From: Magnetococcales bacterium
Lineage (GTDB): Bacteria; Pseudomonadota; Magnetococcia; Magnetococcales; Magnetaquicoccaceae
Assembly (NCBI GenBank): GCA_002753095.1
Contig: PDZU01000002.1
Location: forward strand, 62,001-126,000
DNA: 64,000 nucleotides
Direction of reading: 5' to 3'
A program made the translations under genes and the position numbers. Each line of letters opens with the position of its first letter. Position 1 is the first letter of the stretch. This document shows, piece after piece, positions 21,858 through 52,360 of the stretch. Under the pieces are notes generated by a model. The model worked only from the letters and a program-made list of their open reading frames with translations, searched no databases and was not told where the DNA came from.

Positions 21858-21888
21858 GTGGTGCGGGATAATCGCATTTAAAAGTGGT

Positions 21889-22047
21889 ATGGGGTCAAGG
21901 GGAGATTATCTCCCCTTGCGGGTTGCAAGGGTGGAACCCTTGCTTGTATGGCGCGCTTTTACATAAGCCAATTTGCGCAGCAAATTGGCGCAGCGCGCCC
22001 AAATTTGTGCCCCGCAGGGGCACGCTTTGGGAGGGCGGCAGCCCGAC
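21889..22047 (+). repeat. dispersed hairpin repeat, 5' half
   Basis: Modules A-D only. A: GGGGAGATTATCTCCCC stem. B: TGCAAGGGTGGAACCCTTGC. C: inner stem CAATTTGCGCAGCAAATTG within outer GGCGCGC/GCGCGCC. D: GTGCCCCGCAGGGGCAC and GGGC/GCCC. The element stops 10 bp before the HIT gene start, so it forms that gene's 5' leader. Confidence 0.85.
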
Positions 22048-22057
22048 ATGCACGGTG

Positions 22058-22519
22058 ATGTCTGAGCAACGACAGGAAAAAATCCAAACGCGATTGCCCT
22101 GGGGTGAGGTAGCCGTCGCGTTGCATCCCCGATTGCGGGAGGACACTGTTTATTTAGGGTGTTTGGCGGTTTGTCAGGTGTTGTTGATGAATGACAGTCG
22201 CTATCCCTGGTTGATTTTGGTGCCCAATCAGGAGGGGTTGAGTGAGTGGGATCAACTCTCCCGTCCGTTGGTTGTTGGGCTCCATGAGGATATTTGTCGC
22301 GCCAGTCAGGTGTTGCGGGATCTGTTCAACCCTGACAAGTTGAATGTGGCCGCTTTGGGCAATGTGGTGCCGCAGTTGCATATTCATGTGGTAGCGCGTT
22401 TTCAGGGGGATGCTGTTTGGCCGAGACCGGTGTGGGGGGCGTTGCCCGCGTTGCCCTATCCGCAGGAGGAGGGCCAAGCGTTGGTGGAGCGATTGCGTGT
22501 CGCGCTGGCCCTTGTTTGA
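22058..22519 (+). CDS. HIT domain protein (histidine-triad hydrolase)
   Basis: 153 residues from ATG 22058, the first Met after the repeat element. The histidine triad PQLHIHVVARF lies near 104-114, preceded by LNVAALGNVVPQLHIH. An earlier block, PWLILVPNQEGLSEWDQL, matches the N-terminal strand-helix of HIT proteins. These enzymes hydrolyse or transfer nucleotidyl groups from dinucleoside polyphosphates, adenylated compounds or AMP-amides. No convincing Shine-Dalgarno is seen; the upstream 160 bp are repeat sequence, so the native leader may have been replaced. Open reading frame continues upstream through the repeat, but that part is not family-like. Confidence 0.87.
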   Translation: MSEQRQEKIQTRLPWGEVAVALHPRLREDTVYLGCLAVCQVLLMNDSRYPWLILVPNQEGLSEWDQLSRPLVVGLHEDICRASQVLRDLFNPDKLNVAALGNVVPQLHIHVVARFQGDAVWPRPVWGALPALPYPQEEGQALVERLRVALALV

Positions 22520-22535
22520 TGGCTTCATCGTCTTG

Positions 22536-22565
22536 ATATCTTGTCAAAATATATCTTGTCAAAAT
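22536..22565. repeat. two tandem copies of a 15-bp unit
   Basis: ATATCTTGTCAAAAT occurs twice back to back, ending directly at the left edge of the element that starts at 22567. It may be a target-related duplication or slippage product. Confidence 0.8.
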
Positions 22566-22566
22566 C

Positions 22567-22740
22567 ATTGCGGGGTGCAGGGGCGATCATCGCCCCTGCT
22601 GGGTGCAGAGCAGAGCCATGCTTGCAATGTGCGGCGTTTTACAGAAGCAAATGCGTAGCATTTGCGCACGCCGCACAGATTTGTGCCCCGCAGGGGCGCT
22701 CTTTGGGAGGGCGGACGCCCGACTTTTAACATCGTTGTAA
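22567..22740 (+). repeat. dispersed hairpin repeat, 5' half (left part of split element)
   Basis: Starts ATTGCGGGGTGCAGGGG with module A (GGGGCGATCATCGCCCC). Module C uses outer stem GTGCGGCG/CGCCGCAC and inner GCAAATGCGTAGCATTTGC. Module D ends in GGGCGGACGCCC, and then CCGACTTTTAAC at 22719-22730. It breaks off where the full copies at 36175 and 51975 continue; the missing 3' half resumes at 23884. Confidence 0.85.
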
Positions 22741-22779
22741 GGCCAACGCTTGCAGGGTAATGCGCGGGTGGCATCGGTT

Positions 22780-23748
22780 TTACGACGGGTCCACCAGCAC
22801 ACTCTCCAATGTCTGTGCATCCAGGATTCGGAGACTCCACTTTTCCAGCGCAGACAGATCAGCATCGGCTATTTTCTGACTGGCCCATGGCGGTAGATCG
22901 CCGAAGCGGCGTTGGAGTTGGCGGGTCAGCATGGATGCCCCCTCTTTTTGTCTGCCCGTGTGCAACCACTCCTGCTGTTGTTTGGCGCGCCACGTCTTCA
23001 TATTCTCTTGTAACATGATCTGTGCCTCCATCAGGTCTTTGGGAAAGGTTTTCCTGGCTACGGACTCCCCAGTCAACGTAACCATGGCATACCAGAGCAT
23101 GTCAGCCAATATCCTGGCCACATTTTCAAATTCTGGATGACGGGTGATCATTTGGAACAGTTCTTCAGCCAAACCGGGCAACTCTTCTGGATCCATGCAC
23201 TGGTCGATCCGGAATAATAACGCCGACACAGCCTCCATTTGCCTCAGCAGATCTGGTGGAAGACGTCCCTGATCGATCAAAAAAAATTGTCCGTCCGGCT
23301 GAAATTTCCACAACGGGGATCCTTCCGGCAAACCGATCAGATCCCGCAACCGCACAGGAGCTAGCCAAGGATGTTCACCATTGTAGATGACGGCAGGGAA
23401 AATCGGTGGCAAAGATCCATCCGACGCAAGCTTTTTCTCATGAACCAACTGCAACCAAAGCAGGTTGGTATATGCGACAATGCGCACGGCCATCATCCAG
23501 TTGACCGCAGACTGAAATTCCAACATCACGAGCAGATACACCATTGCGCCTGAGTGAGTCGGAATTTGCCAAACCACGTCACCCTCGCGTTTTGGCAGAA
23601 ATCGGAGGTGAAACTTGGTGTTGAGCCTCTGCATGTGGGTGAAATCCAGTTCCTGTACCCATGGCTCGTTGACAAAATGCACCATTAAATCCGCTACCAT
23701 GTGCGGATCTGTGTAAACCTGGTGATAGGTGCCATCGTGATCAGCCAT
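22780..23748 (-). CDS. Rpn family recombination-promoting nuclease (PD-(D/E)XK, DUF4351)
   Basis: 322 residues from ATG 23748. The N-terminal nuclease domain has the family's EGDVVWQI (catalytic Asp, about 55-62) and LEFQS (E-x-Q, about 77), followed by VNWMMAVRIVAYTNLLWLQL-type helices. The C-terminal 55 residues are DUF4351 (GASMLTRQLQRRFGDLPPWA, end AQTLESVL). Rpn/YhgA-like proteins are DNA endonucleases that raise recombination and are often annotated as putative transposases. It looks intact and is the only gene between the two halves of a dispersed repeat. A host defence or recombination role is also possible. Confidence 0.88.
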   Translation of the reverse strand: MADHDGTYHQVYTDPHMVADLMVHFVNEPWVQELDFTHMQRLNTKFHLRFLPKREGDVVWQIPTHSGAMVYLLVMLEFQSAVNWMMAVRIVAYTNLLWLQLVHEKKLASDGSLPPIFPAVIYNGEHPWLAPVRLRDLIGLPEGSPLWKFQPDGQFFLIDQGRLPPDLLRQMEAVSALLFRIDQCMDPEELPGLAEELFQMITRHPEFENVARILADMLWYAMVTLTGESVARKTFPKDLMEAQIMLQENMKTWRAKQQQEWLHTGRQKEGASMLTRQLQRRFGDLPPWASQKIADADLSALEKWSLRILDAQTLESVLVDPS

Positions 23749-23883
23749 GCCCCACCTGTCTGGTTGTGCGCAAGGACCGGAAAATGAAGGCAGTGTAACA
23801 GGTTGGCCGATGGAGTTCTACCGGAATCGCAGGAGCACGGACAAGTCGCGTCTCGTTCCGGCATGCCCCAATCGTGACGCATT

Positions 23884-24130
23884 CCGACTTTTAACTTCGA
23901 GGTATTGAGCTCCCAACGGGGAAAACCCATTGGGAGGGTGTTTGAATTGGCGCAGAAAAGCGCGCCAATCCAAACACCTTGCGTCAATTAGGCGCGCTTG
24001 CGCCGATGCAAAAAACGCATCGGCTTATCGTGAAAAGCGCGCCAGAAGAGCAAAGTCAAAAGATAAAAGATTAAAATCCCAGGGCTCCGCCCTGCACCCG
24101 CCAGGGAGCCAGCTCCCTGGACCCGCAATT
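23884..24130 (+). repeat. dispersed hairpin repeat, 3' half (right part of split element)
   Basis: Begins CCGACTTTTAAC, then CCCATTGGGAGG, a long stem TGTTTG..TTGGCGC / GCGCCAA..CAAACA, GCCGATGC / GCATCGGC, an AAAAGATTAAAAT-type run, and two final hairpins ending CTCCCTGGACCCGCAATT. It corresponds to the second half of the full copies. It lies downstream of dapF (minus strand) and may terminate it. Confidence 0.85.
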
Positions 24131-24140
24131 GTTTTCTGAA

Positions 24141-25172
24141 TCAACGGGTTATGCAAGATTCCAGAGATGTGCCCCGCAACAGGGCACGGTCAAACAAACT
24201 CCGCTGCTCTAAAAGATTGAAACGTTCCTCTTCTTCCGGGAATCTCTTTTCAATCACGACAGCTTCCATGCCAGCAAAACGGATGACCTGCTCATCCAGG
24301 ATCAAAGTGCTGTGACCGCTATAAATCCAGGTCGCATTGCCAGTCAATTGGGCCAGCAGCGCTTGTCCATCCACATGCGGGGTCACCCAGACAATTCCCC
24401 CAGCAGTATGCACCGCAATGGGCTGATGATTGTCCACCGTATCATTGAGTACCTGCGCCACCACAGAGGCGGTCATGCCGGTGCCACAGGAGAGAGTCAA
24501 ACCAGCCCCACGCTCATAGGTCTGTACCAATACCGTGCGCCGATCGATGATCTGTACAAAACTGACATTGGCGCGATTGCTGAACATCGGATGCTGCTCC
24601 AAAGCATGACCCAACCCCATCAGATCAACCTGCCCAAGCGCCGGGACAGTGACAATCAAATGCGGATTGCCCACCGAAAGAATGGTGCCAATAATACTCT
24701 GTTCCCCAACCAATACGGACTGGTTCAGGAACGGTGTGCTGCTGCCACTGCGCAAAATCTGACTCGGATTGGTCGAAAGCGGCGCCGTGCTCACCCGCAC
24801 AAAGTGCAGTTGGTGCTCCGAAGAATAAAAATTTTCCGTCTTGAAAATGCCCCCCAGCGTGTGGAACAACAACGGATCAATACCGGCAAAGTCGCCCGCA
24901 AACGCCGCCCGCGCCGCACAGCGAATGCCGTTGCCACACATCTCTGCCTCGCTGCCATCCGGGTTGAAAAAGCGCATGCGGGGCTGCTGCGGGGTGACCG
25001 CAGAGAGATAAACGACCCCGTCAGCTCCAATGCCACCCTGGCGATCACACAGCAGACGGGTGCAGGCGCCCTTGAACGCCTCCGGGATGCGCTCACCCCG
25101 ACATTCATCCAGGATGATAAAATCGTTGCGGGTGCCATGGCCCTTGATCAGGGGCAGGGTGATGGTTGGCAT
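24141..25172 (-). CDS. dapF: diaminopimelate epimerase
   Basis: 343 residues from ATG 25172 with GAGGAGAG upstream. The enzyme turns L,L-diaminopimelate into meso-DAP for lysine and peptidoglycan. The two catalytic cysteines are C79 in EMCGNGIRC and C229 in SCGTGMTAS. The substrate-binding GHGTRNDFII opens the protein and SVGNPHLIV lies midway. At 343 residues it is about 65 longer than usual; the extra C-terminal tail (ending TSLESCITR, with an EEEERFNLLEQ helix) is of unknown role. hisC lies 10 bp upstream on the same strand, so they form an operon. The 3' side is a dispersed repeat. Confidence 0.95.
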   Translation of the reverse strand: MPTITLPLIKGHGTRNDFIILDECRGERIPEAFKGACTRLLCDRQGGIGADGVVYLSAVTPQQPRMRFFNPDGSEAEMCGNGIRCAARAAFAGDFAGIDPLLFHTLGGIFKTENFYSSEHQLHFVRVSTAPLSTNPSQILRSGSSTPFLNQSVLVGEQSIIGTILSVGNPHLIVTVPALGQVDLMGLGHALEQHPMFSNRANVSFVQIIDRRTVLVQTYERGAGLTLSCGTGMTASVVAQVLNDTVDNHQPIAVHTAGGIVWVTPHVDGQALLAQLTGNATWIYSGHSTLILDEQVIRFAGMEAVVIEKRFPEEEERFNLLEQRSLFDRALLRGTSLESCITR

Positions 25173-28892: not shown

Positions 28893-30376
28893 TGAATGTG
28901 TTCAAAAAAGGGTCGCGATCACGATCTGGGCGTGGTAACCATGTGCGGGAAGACTCCTTTGCAGCGACGGTGGCGCAAGGGGCGGCGGAGTCCGGTCCTG
29001 CCGCACCGCCCAGTGCCGCCCAGGTGGGCGTTTTTCTGCGTCAGGCGCGAGAACGGCAAGGGTTGAGCATCGCTGAGATTGCCCGTCGTACCCGCATTCG
29101 TGATGTCTATCTGCTGGCGTTGGAGGCCGGTGAGGTTGAAAAACTTCCTGGCATGACCTTCGTTGCCGGTTTTTTGCGGTTGTATGCCGAAACTCTGGAG
29201 TTGCCGGACCGGGCGCTGATTGAACGCTATCTGGAGAGTTCCGAGAACGAAGGTACCCTCAGCACCCGTTTTGTGCCAGCACCGACCGCCTCACGCCATC
29301 GGCCAGCGGTCATTTTGGTCCTGGGTGGGGTGTTGACTCTGTTGATGCTGTTTTATGTGTATGAAAATTATATTGCCCCCTTTTCGGCCTCGTTGAAGCC
29401 GCCGCAGTTGCCCACCACCCAACCGATGCGTGCCGATTCGCTGCCGGCAGGGGCAGCACGCAGCCATGCGGATCAACCGGATCCAGTGCTGCACGATGGC
29501 AACGAAAAGGATAACTTTGCTGAGGATATGCTGGAGCGTTTCTTTGAGCAGTCCGGGGTCGGTGAGGAGGAAGAGGAGGAGGAAGAAGGGACAGCGGAAG
29601 GGAGTGCGCCTGGCAAAGGTGGCAACGCGACGGCCCGACTGGGGCAGGCAGAGGAGGCAACGACTGCACCGGGTGGAGGAGAAGCAGCGCCAGGGACGAT
29701 GCAGCGCTTCAAAGAGTGGTTCCAGCGTTTGCTGCCAAGTGGTGAGAGTGATCGTGCTGCGGGTGAGAGTCGTTCGGTGGCGCTGCCGGTCATGCCACTG
29801 GCAGCCCCACCGAAGCCGACGGGGACAGCAAAGGTGGTGGAGGTGATCAAGCCGCCAGACCCCGTTAAAACTGCAGAGCCCCCCAAAGCGGTTGAGCCGC
29901 CCAAGGTGGTAGAACCCGCCAAAACGGTTGAGTTGCCCAAAACGGTTGCGGCGCCCAAGGTTGCTGAACCGGCCAAGGTGGTGGAGGCGCCCAAGGTGGT
30001 GGAGACGCCACGCAAGCCGGTGCCACAGGAGAGTGGCGACCCTTCGACGATCATTCGCGGTCGTTATCAGGAGAAGGTGAATGGTCCGGCGGATTTGCAG
30101 GCAGACTCGGAGCAGTCGGTCTCCCTGTTGGCCAGCGAGATGGTCTGGGTGCAGATTCAGGATGACAAGGGGCAGATCGTCAAGGATATGGTGATGCAGC
30201 CCAACCATATTTTCCGCCTGCCCAAGGGGGGCCATTTCAAGGCCACATTGGGCAATGCGGCGGCGGTGCGGGTGCGTGTCGGCCAGCGGGATCTGCCCTA
30301 CCTGGGGGCGGCGGGGGCGGAGGTTGGCGATGTCGATCTGACACCGGAGGCCCTGTTGAAGCGGGTGAAACCATGA
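28892..30376 (+). CDS. rodZ: cytoskeletal protein RodZ-like (HTH, TM, periplasmic repeat linker)
   Basis: 494 residues from ATG 28892 (a GTG 3 nt earlier is equally possible). The helix-turn-helix domain (about 48-105) has VGVFLRQARERQGLSIAEIA and the RodZ-typical GMTFVAGFLRLYAE. A membrane helix lies near 133-150 (PAVILVLGGVLTLLMLFYVY). The periplasmic part holds a poly-Glu run near 230, then about ten loose copies of a PPKxVE/PAKxVE motif (310-375) that can span the periplasm. A DUF4115-like domain ends the protein (MVWVQIQDDKGQIV). RodZ links MreB to the wall machinery and keeps rod shape. It is longer than E. coli RodZ (337 aa) because of the linker. Confidence 0.87.
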   Translation: MNVFKKGSRSRSGRGNHVREDSFAATVAQGAAESGPAAPPSAAQVGVFLRQARERQGLSIAEIARRTRIRDVYLLALEAGEVEKLPGMTFVAGFLRLYAETLELPDRALIERYLESSENEGTLSTRFVPAPTASRHRPAVILVLGGVLTLLMLFYVYENYIAPFSASLKPPQLPTTQPMRADSLPAGAARSHADQPDPVLHDGNEKDNFAEDMLERFFEQSGVGEEEEEEEEGTAEGSAPGKGGNATARLGQAEEATTAPGGGEAAPGTMQRFKEWFQRLLPSGESDRAAGESRSVALPVMPLAAPPKPTGTAKVVEVIKPPDPVKTAEPPKAVEPPKVVEPAKTVELPKTVAAPKVAEPAKVVEAPKVVETPRKPVPQESGDPSTIIRGRYQEKVNGPADLQADSEQSVSLLASEMVWVQIQDDKGQIVKDMVMQPNHIFRLPKGGHFKATLGNAAAVRVRVGQRDLPYLGAAGAEVGDVDLTPEALLKRVKP

Positions 30377-36174: not shown

Positions 36175-36552
36175 AATGCGGGGTGCAGGGGCGATCATCG
36201 CCCCTGCCGGGTTGCAAGGGCGGAGCCCTTGCTTGTAATGGCGCGCTTTTACCGAAGCAGATTTGGCGCAGCCAAATCTGCGCAGCGCGCCCAAATCTGT
36301 GCCCCGCAGGGGCACTCCTTGGGAGGGCGGAGCCCGACTTTAACCGTGTTGTTGTAAGTTACCGACGGGGAAAACCCATTGGGAGGGTGTTTGGGTTGGC
36401 GCTTAAGCCGATGCAAAAGACGCATCGGCTTATCGTAAAAAGCGCGCCAAAAAACAAGGCTAAAAGGCTAAAAGATTAAAATCAAAAGAAAAATTCCCAG
36501 GGCTCTGCCCTGGACCCGCCAGGGGGGTGACCCCCCTGGACCCACAATCATT
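36175..36552 (+). repeat. dispersed hairpin repeat, full-length copy
   Basis: About 378 bp between two convergent genes (der and 36586). Module order: A GGGGCGATCATCGCCCC; B GCAAGGGCGGAGCCCTTGC; C AGATTTGGCGCAGCCAAATC inside GGCGCGC/GCGCGCC; D GTGCCCCGCAGGGGCAC; CCCATTGGGAGG; GCCGATGC/GCATCGGC; AAAAGATTAAAA run; two end hairpins CCAGGGCTCTGCCCTGG and GGGGGGTGACCCCCC. It ends CTGGACCCACAATCATT. The middle long stem is shortened compared with the 51975 copy. Confidence 0.9.
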
Positions 36553-49680: not shown

Positions 49681-50127
49681 AATTATTGCGGGTCCAGGGA
49701 GCTGGCTCCCTGGCGGGTCCAGGGCAGAGCCCTGGGAATTTTTCTTTTGATTTTAATCTTTTAATCTTTTAATCTTTTAATCTTTTAATCTTTTAATCTT
49801 TTATCTTTTATCTTTTAATCTTTTGCCTTTGGCGCGCTTTTCACAGTAAGCCGATGCGCCTTTTGCATCGGCGCAGCGCGCCTAATTGACGCAAGCATTG
49901 CACATTGGCGCGCTTTTCTGCGCCAATGTGCAATGCCTCCCAATGGGTTTTAATACCTCGACGTTAAAAGTCGGGCTCCGCCCTCCCAAAGAGTGCCCCT
50001 GCGGGGCACAGATTTGGGCGCGCTGCGCAGATTTACTGCGTAAATCTGCTTGTGTAAAAGCGCGCCATTGCAGCAGGGCTCTGCCCTGCACCCGCAAGGG
50101 GAGATAATCTCCCCTTGACCCCATGAT
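49681..50127 (-). repeat. dispersed hairpin repeat, full-length copy in reverse orientation
   Basis: About 447 bp, reading on the minus strand in the same module order as the 51975 copy. It has the long stem GCATTGCACATTGGCGC / GCGCCAATGTGCAATGC and GCCGATGC/GCATCGGC. Module C is AGATTTACGCAGTAAATCT, and D is GTGCCCCGCAGGGGCAC. Module A is GGGGAGATTATCTCCCC, as in the 21889 copy. Its A/T spacer is expanded into tandem TTTTAATC units. Confidence 0.9.
49751..49820. repeat. tandem TTTTAATC array
   Basis: Six perfect 8-bp TTTTAATC units, two 7-bp TTTTATC units and one more 8-bp unit. It lies inside the 49681 repeat, where other copies have only one or two units (for example near 24066 and 36468), so length varies by slippage. 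Confidence 0.9.
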
Positions 50128-51974: not shown

Positions 51975-52360
51975 ACTGCGGGGTGCAGGGGCGGTCACCG
52001 CCCCTGCTGGGTGCAGGGCAAAGCCCTGCTTGTAATGGCGCGCTTTTACCGAAGCAGATTTGCGCAGCAAATCTGCGCAGCGCGCCCAAATCTGTGCCCC
52101 GCAGGGGCACTCTTTGGGAGGGCGGAGCCCGACTTTTAACGTCGAGGTATCAAAACCCATTGGGAGGCATTGCACATTGGCGCAGAAAAGCGCGCCAATG
52201 TGCAATGCTTGCGTCAATTAGGCGCGCTGCGCCGACGCAAAAACCGCGTCGGCTTACTGTGAAAAGCGCGCCAAAAGCAACAGATAAATTCAACAGATAA
52301 GTTCCCAGGGCTCTGCCCTGGACCCGCCAGGGGGGTGTCCCCCCTGGACCCACAATCATT
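51975..52360 (+). repeat. dispersed hairpin repeat, full-length copy
   Basis: About 386 bp between two convergent genes (activator and preP). Module A is GGGGCGGTCACCGCCCC and C is AGATTTGCGCAGCAAATCT. The long stem is GCATTGCACATTGGCGC / GCGCCAATGTGCAATGC. The next stem reads GCCGACGC / GCGTCGGC, a compensated variant of GCCGATGC/GCATCGGC. It ends CTGGACCCACAATCATT, the inverted counterpart of the left end. This is the best intact reference copy. Confidence 0.92.

What the first reader, a model, noticed from the sequence alone, without database searches (positions are those of the whole stretch)
22567..24130. Rpn-family nuclease gene sits inside a split copy of a dispersed repeat
The repeat at 22567-22740 is the 5' half and that at 23884-24130 the 3' half of the full copies at 36175 and 51975. 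Between them is one gene, an intact Rpn/DUF4351 nuclease, bordered by the 12-bp direct repeat CCGACTTTTAAC (22719-22730, 23884-23895). The outer ends are imperfect inverted repeats. A simple reading is a mobile element whose nuclease gene is lost in the other copies, giving MITE-like relatives. Rpn proteins are known to promote recombination, but I know of no description of an Rpn gene carried in a structured repeat. The alternative is a chance insertion of rpn into a repeat.
Basis: partly seen in the sequence, partly recalled or inferred. Interest (0 to 1): 0.9.

Follow-up and report, generated by a model that had tools for sequence, protein, structure and literature searches.

The report
Nuclease gene inserted into fused MITE
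A gene for an Rpn-type DNA-cutting (toxin/defence) protein has landed in the middle of one of this magnetotactic bacterium's hundreds of small dispersed mobile repeats, splitting it and duplicating 12 bases; the gene is a guest there and not the engine of the repeat.

Summary
Window 22567-24130 is one copy of a dispersed repeat ("A" + "B") split by 1,153 bp that carry a single rpn gene (PF04754 + DUF4351), with CCGACTTTTAAC on both sides. In intact copies the 12-mer is present once, exactly between A and B. The whole unit is missing at the orthologous convergent HIT/dapF site of two sister genomes.

The main interpretation, a mobile element that encodes rpn and whose deletion gave the MITE-like copies, is not supported. 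In sister genome G005, A and B are two separate MITE families: A is 246 bp with ISAs1-type ends and 9-10-bp target duplications; B is 259 bp with ends GTAACTATTCA, shared with an IS66 transposase element in the window's own genome, and 8-bp duplications. Neither carries rpn. Of 30 Rpn match loci in this genome only 2 lie near A or B, below the random rate.

Best reading: rpn, with its own upstream region, was inserted once into a fused A-B element at its joint, duplicating 12 bp. How it was inserted is unknown. The repeats are new MITE families with a strongly covarying stem. A second A-B joint split by a BrnT-type toxin locus leaves open a weaker idea, that the joint is a preferred landing site.

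The parts
22567..22718 (+). Module A (5' half of the split repeat): four hairpins, ends GGGAGGGCGGACGC
   Evidence: conserved in sister genomes
22719..22730 (+). Left copy of the joint 12-mer CCGACTTTTAAC
22731..23883 (-). Inserted segment, 1,153 bp, holding rpn, its upstream region and 49 bp downstream of the stop; no terminal inverted repeats seen
   Evidence: boundaries from comparison with intact A-B copies
22780..23748 (-). rpn, 322 aa, Rpn/YhgA-like PD-(D/E)XK nuclease with C-terminal DUF4351; motifs GD(56-57)...E77-F-Q79; possible internal RpnS starts at codons 245 and 273 preceded by GGAGG / GAGGGGG
23749..23867 (-). rpn upstream region, about 75% identical to that of the paralogue at G000:C30 (L032)
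23884..23895 (+). Right copy of the joint 12-mer CCGACTTTTAAC
23896..24130 (+). Module B (3' half): joint remnant CGAGGTATTGAG..., long covarying hairpin, further hairpins, end CCCTGGACCCGCAATTGTTTT
   Evidence: sister-genome B is a 259-bp MITE
22058..22519 (+). HIT-domain gene, left flank of the site (convergent)
24141..25172 (-). dapF (diaminopimelate epimerase), right flank of the site (convergent)

Best explanation
An A-B composite, built from two different miniature inverted-repeat elements, entered the short convergent intergenic gap between a HIT-domain gene and dapF. Later a 1,153-bp segment holding an intact rpn gene and its upstream region was inserted once at the A/B joint, duplicating CCGACTTTTAAC. 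The rpn gene is a guest and does not mobilise the repeat. The repeat modules move, or moved, through ISAs1-type (A) and IS66-type (B) transposases acting in trans. Rpn itself probably works as in the published Rpn toxin-antitoxin/defence genes: a nuclease held in check by its internally translated C-terminal DUF4351 domain. Shown here: split, 12-bp duplication, empty sites, separate MITE identity of A and B in a sister genome, lack of association with other rpn genes. Inferred: the order of events, the insertion enzyme (unknown), the transposases acting in trans, and the function of rpn.
For: Intact A-B copies carry the 12-mer once at the joint, and removing 1,153 bp plus one 12-mer from the rpn copy gives that consensus. 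B with an intact joint but no adjacent A occurs only here in 43 B cores. HIT and dapF are 31 bp apart in G004 and 114 bp apart in G005, with no repeat and no rpn. In G005, A is a 246-bp MITE with TIR CAGGGCAATCGCATTT; of 26 copies 16 have a 10-bp flanking duplication at <=1 mismatch (shuffled mean 0.6, max 4) and further copies a 9-bp one. In G005, B is a 259-bp MITE with TIR GTAACTATTCAG and an 8-bp duplication in 11 of 26 (shuffled mean 0.5, max 5). An IS66-family transposase element with inverted ends GTAACTATTCACCACCC is in the window's genome. ISAs1 ends (14-22 bp, starting CAGGG, 10-bp repeats) and IS66 ends (starting GTAAGCG, 8-bp repeats) are described in PMC11946415. Rpn paralogues are not enriched near A or B. 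The paralogue at C30 shares the rpn upstream region to within 17 bp of the right border and has no A or B nearby.
Against: The inserted segment has no terminal inverted repeats and no transposase of its own, and the Rpn preprint reports no target duplications for rpn gene arrays and variable region ends (PMC10327210), so a 12-bp duplication lacks a known enzyme. The bases after the left 12-mer (ATCG) resemble those after stand-alone A copies (next base A in 14 of 19 stand-alone against 2 of 33 A-B copies), although the following sequence is not significantly like their tails. No occupied/empty pair differing only by rpn is available, so the order of A-B and rpn arrival is inferred.
Confidence: 0.65

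Rival explanations
1. Recombination product: an independent stand-alone A copy next to rpn was joined by recombination to an A-B copy whose own A was lost at the 12-mer, so the two halves come from two different repeat copies.
For: The left joint continues ATCG as stand-alone A copies mostly do, while the right continues TTCGAGG as A-B copies do. Repeats are dense (71 A hits in 738 kb), so ectopic recombination is plausible.
Against: The tail similarity beyond ATCG is not significant (about 10% of shuffles do as well). It needs an unrelated break falling exactly at the first base of the 12-mer. A directly matching A-B consensus is restored by removing the insert.
Confidence: 0.2
2. Cargo cassette: A-rpn-B is a mobile insertion cassette or mosaic MITE in which the outer ends carry rpn as passenger, and the whole 1.6 kb moved into HIT/dapF as one unit.
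For: The whole unit is absent at the orthologous site in G004 and G005. The outer ends are imperfect inverted repeats. Known MITE-derived mosaic elements and cassettes carry passengers (PMC4133298, PMC5444012).
Against: No second copy of A-rpn-B in the genome or its six genus relatives. No target duplication at the outer ends of this copy or of the other A-B copies examined (12 in all). The A-B copies in this genome have lost the ISAs1-type and IS66-type terminal repeats.
Confidence: 0.1
3. One reading: rpn is the native recombination gene of the element and the A-B copies are deletion derivatives.
For: One intact rpn lies exactly at the A/B joint; Rpn nucleases promote RecA-independent recombination (PMC5350276).
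Against: A and B are separate MITEs with different transposase-type ends in G005. Rpn is not enriched near A or B. Rpn proteins are judged not to be transposases (PMC10327210).
Confidence: 0.03

Closest known systems
MITEs with ISAs1-type ends
   Same: Sister-genome A: 246 bp, non-coding, 16-bp TIR starting CAGGG, 9-10-bp target duplication, 221 first-look candidates; ISAs1 description in PMC11946415
   Different: No matching autonomous ISAs1 element found; PF13808 gives no match in G005 and one locus in G000 without matching ends. In the window's genome the ends are decayed
MITEs with IS66-type ends
   Same: Sister-genome B: 259 bp, ends GTAACTATTCA, 8-bp target duplication; an IS66 transposase element with the same ends is in the window's genome
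   Different: TIR is GTAACTATTC and not GTAAGCG as in the published description; in the window's genome B has lost these ends and is nearly always fused to A
Mobile insertion cassettes / TIME mosaic elements
   Same: MITE-type modules on either side of a passenger gene
   Different: Here the gene interrupts the internal joint of one composite, with a 12-bp duplication at the joint, and no second copy exists
Rpn (YhgA-like, Transposase_31) nucleases with RpnS
   Same: PF04754 N-terminus, E-F-Q motif, DUF4351 C-terminus, possible internal starts, many paralogues per genome, stand-alone DUF4351 pieces as described in PMC10327210
   Different: Flanked by an exact 12-bp duplication inside a repeat; published rpn regions have variable ends and no such duplications

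Membership tests
MITE (modules A and B, sister genome G005) | Short, non-coding, multicopy | tested here: met
   246 and 259 bp, at least 40 scored copies each of 221 and 286 candidates
MITE (modules A and B, sister genome G005) | Terminal inverted repeats and target site duplications | tested here: met
MITE (A-B composite in the window's genome) | Target site duplications at outer ends | tested here: not met
   12 A-B copies, no offset with shared flanking words
IS66-mobilised MITE (B) | Same ends as an autonomous IS66 element | tested here: met
   L344 ends GTAACTATTCACCACCC against B right end; mobilisation itself not tested
ISAs1-mobilised MITE (A) | Autonomous ISAs1 element with the same ends | tested here: not met
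   end type and duplication length do fit the published ISAs1 description
Mobile insertion cassette | Passenger gene between transposase-recognised ends, unit moves as a whole | tested here: inconclusive
   single copy, no outer duplication, but the whole unit is absent in sister genomes
Rpn nuclease | PF04754 above cut-off and catalytic D...E-x-Q motif | tested here: met
   motif read from the sequence, residues compared with D63/E82/Q84 of RpnA in PMC5350276
Rpn toxin-antitoxin (RpnL/RpnS) | Internal translation start giving a C-terminal inhibitor | not testable with these tools
   candidate ATGs with GGAGG/GAGGGGG upstream exist at codons 245 and 273

The most novel reading that the evidence does not exclude
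The conserved joint CCGACTTTTAAC of these repeats is a preferred integration site at which small toxin-antitoxin or defence genes are captured between A and B, like a cassette at an attachment site. Two A-B joints in the genome are split, one by rpn and one, decayed, by a BrnT-type locus (C128:30259-31760), and in both the B half resumes at CCG(AC)TTTAAC.
Probability: 0.08. Interest if true: 0.6.

Novelty: new member of a known kind. Interest (0 to 1): 0.33.

Why it matters
Rpn genes are known to spread between genomes without any recognised ends. Here the two borders of one rpn acquisition can be read to the base, with a 12-bp duplication, which makes the mode of entry testable. The finding also describes two abundant MITE families in Magnetococcales, one with a matching IS66 element, that in one lineage have fused into a composite with a covarying stem.

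Tried and rejected
Rfam gave no match in the window or at low threshold in 22400-24300. PADLOC gave no match to the rpn protein. Other A...A or A...B pairs 0.6-1.6 kb apart mostly enclose ordinary chromosomal genes (for example ones that look like hemC and ccmC), so proximity of two repeats is no sign of cargo. The tail after the left 12-mer was tested as a decayed stand-alone-A tail: not significant. Terminal inverted repeats of the rpn insert were looked for by eye: none. A matching ISAs1 element was not found. The L044 Rpn locus lies between A fragments but has an N gap and about 400 bp between A and rpn, so it was not counted as a second case.

Full report
WHAT IS THERE. The window lies in a draft genome (3.58 Mb, 177 contigs) from a group near Ca. 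Magnetaquicoccus inordinatus and other Magnetococcales, judged from the named organisms that carry the same repeat motif. At 22567-22718 is a hairpin-rich module, A; at 23896-24130 another, B. A is followed and B is preceded by CCGACTTTTAAC, and between the two 12-mers lie 1,153 bp with one rpn gene on the minus strand.

IS IT A SPLIT REPEAT? Yes. Alignments of many intact copies show A, then CCGACTTTTAAC (or CGACTTTTAAC), then a short joint, then B. In 1.09 Mb of the same genome there are 43 B cores; 36 follow directly on A, most of the others lack the joint, and the rpn copy is the only one that has the full joint without A. Taking out the insert with one 12-mer restores the joint consensus. 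A is not only half of a longer repeat: it also stands alone in many places.

EMPTY SITES. The unit sits between a HIT-domain gene and dapF, which are convergent. The two are 31 bp apart in genus relative G004 and 114 bp apart in G005, with no repeat and no rpn. In G001 the same gap holds a TPR-like gene and two inverted A-type repeats, so the gap has taken in repeats more than once. About 57 bp of non-repeat sequence remain around the unit in the window.

WHAT THE MODULES ARE. In G005, A is the core of a 246-bp element with 16-bp ends CAGGGCAATCGCATTT; of 26 copies with both ends, 16 have 10-bp flanking duplications at up to one mismatch (shuffled mean 0.6, maximum 4), and others have 9-bp ones. 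B is the core of a 259-bp element with ends GTAACTATTCAG / TGAATAGTTAC and 8-bp duplications in 11 of 26 (shuffled mean 0.5, maximum 5). The first fits the published description of ISAs1-family ends; the second fits IS66 in duplication length and in the GTAA start. An IS66-family transposase element in the window's own genome has ends GTAACTATTCACCACCC, the same as the B element's right end. So the two "halves" are two different MITEs that became fused in this lineage. The A-B copies of this genome have lost those ends and show no target duplications at their outer ends (12 copies); how the composite itself spread is open.

STRUCTURE. The long stem of B changes in sequence from copy to copy but keeps pairing: 13 pairs have changes on both sides in 24 copies, while the linkers hardly vary. 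The hairpin is conserved; these data do not say whether it is kept as RNA, as single-stranded DNA during transposition, or by hairpin-directed repair.

THE RPN GENE. It has the PF04754 and DUF4351 domains, the E-F-Q motif, and two internal ATGs preceded by ribosome-binding-site-like sequences that could give a separate C-terminal protein, as published for Rpn genes (PMC10327210). Its upstream region is about 75% identical to that of a paralogue on contig C30 up to window position about 23867, 17 bp from the right border, and homology ends just after the stop codon. The segment therefore looks like a gene with its own upstream region. Of 30 Rpn match loci in this genome (some adjacent or overlapping), 2 have A or B within 1.5 kb, against 22.9% of random 3.2-kb windows; in relatives 2 of 29. 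One of the latter is a B element just downstream of an rpn gene in G005, not around it. There is thus no general link between rpn and these repeats.

MECHANISM. The best-supported account is a single insertion of the rpn segment into an A-B composite at its joint with a 12-bp duplication (confidence 0.65). The insert has no inverted ends and no transposase, and published rpn regions show no such duplications, so the enzyme is unknown. The main rival is recombination between a stand-alone A and an A-B copy, suggested by the base that follows the left 12-mer (14 of 19 stand-alone copies have A there, only 2 of 33 A-B copies), but the similarity does not extend significantly further. A passenger cassette is possible but there is no second copy and no outer duplication.

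VERDICT. A real, well-resolved but essentially ordinary event: a horizontally mobile defence-type gene inserted in a MITE composite. The MITE families look undescribed: two targeted paper searches found nothing on repeats or MITEs in this group, and a term search of the UR-1 genome paper found no mention of repeats or transposable elements. A second, decayed A-B joint split by a BrnT-type locus is the only hint that the joint may be a preferred landing site.

Noticed in passing
window 21864-22101: A stand-alone A element with decayed ISAs1-type ends lies at the 5' end of the HIT gene; its right end reads into the gene, so the start codon and first residues (MSEQRQEKIQTRLPWG) appear to come from the element. 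In relatives the similarity to HIT begins only at residue 15-20.
   Followed up: partly
G000:C128:30259-31760 (L173): A second A-B pair is split by about 1 kb with a BrnT toxin gene (PF04365) and debris; the B half resumes at CCGTTTAAC, a decayed form of the same joint.
   Followed up: partly
window 23938-23979 and the same stem in all B copies: Hypervariable stem: 13 base pairs of B have compensatory changes in 24 copies, while flanking linkers are nearly invariant.
   Followed up: partly
window 49685-50122 and 51977-52356: Two A-B copies in inverted orientation (258 bp, 95% complementary) flank two genes, a membrane protein and a sigma-54-type regulator; the segment could invert.
   Followed up: no
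G000:C30:1-1630 (L032) and other Rpn loci: Stand-alone or tandem DUF4351 C-terminal pieces; this part is often more conserved in DNA between paralogues (up to 86%) than the nuclease part, the reverse of the variable C-termini reported in E. coli.
   Followed up: no
G000:C154 (L344): IS66-family element with inverted ends GTAACTATTCACCACCC about 1.58 kb apart, a probable autonomous partner of the B MITE.
   Followed up: partly
G001:C200 between dapF and HIT (L125): The same intergenic site holds a TPR-like gene and two inverted A-type repeats around a short tandem repeat.
   Followed up: no
window 29800-30003: Tandem 18-bp units, probably protein-coding repeats.
   Followed up: no
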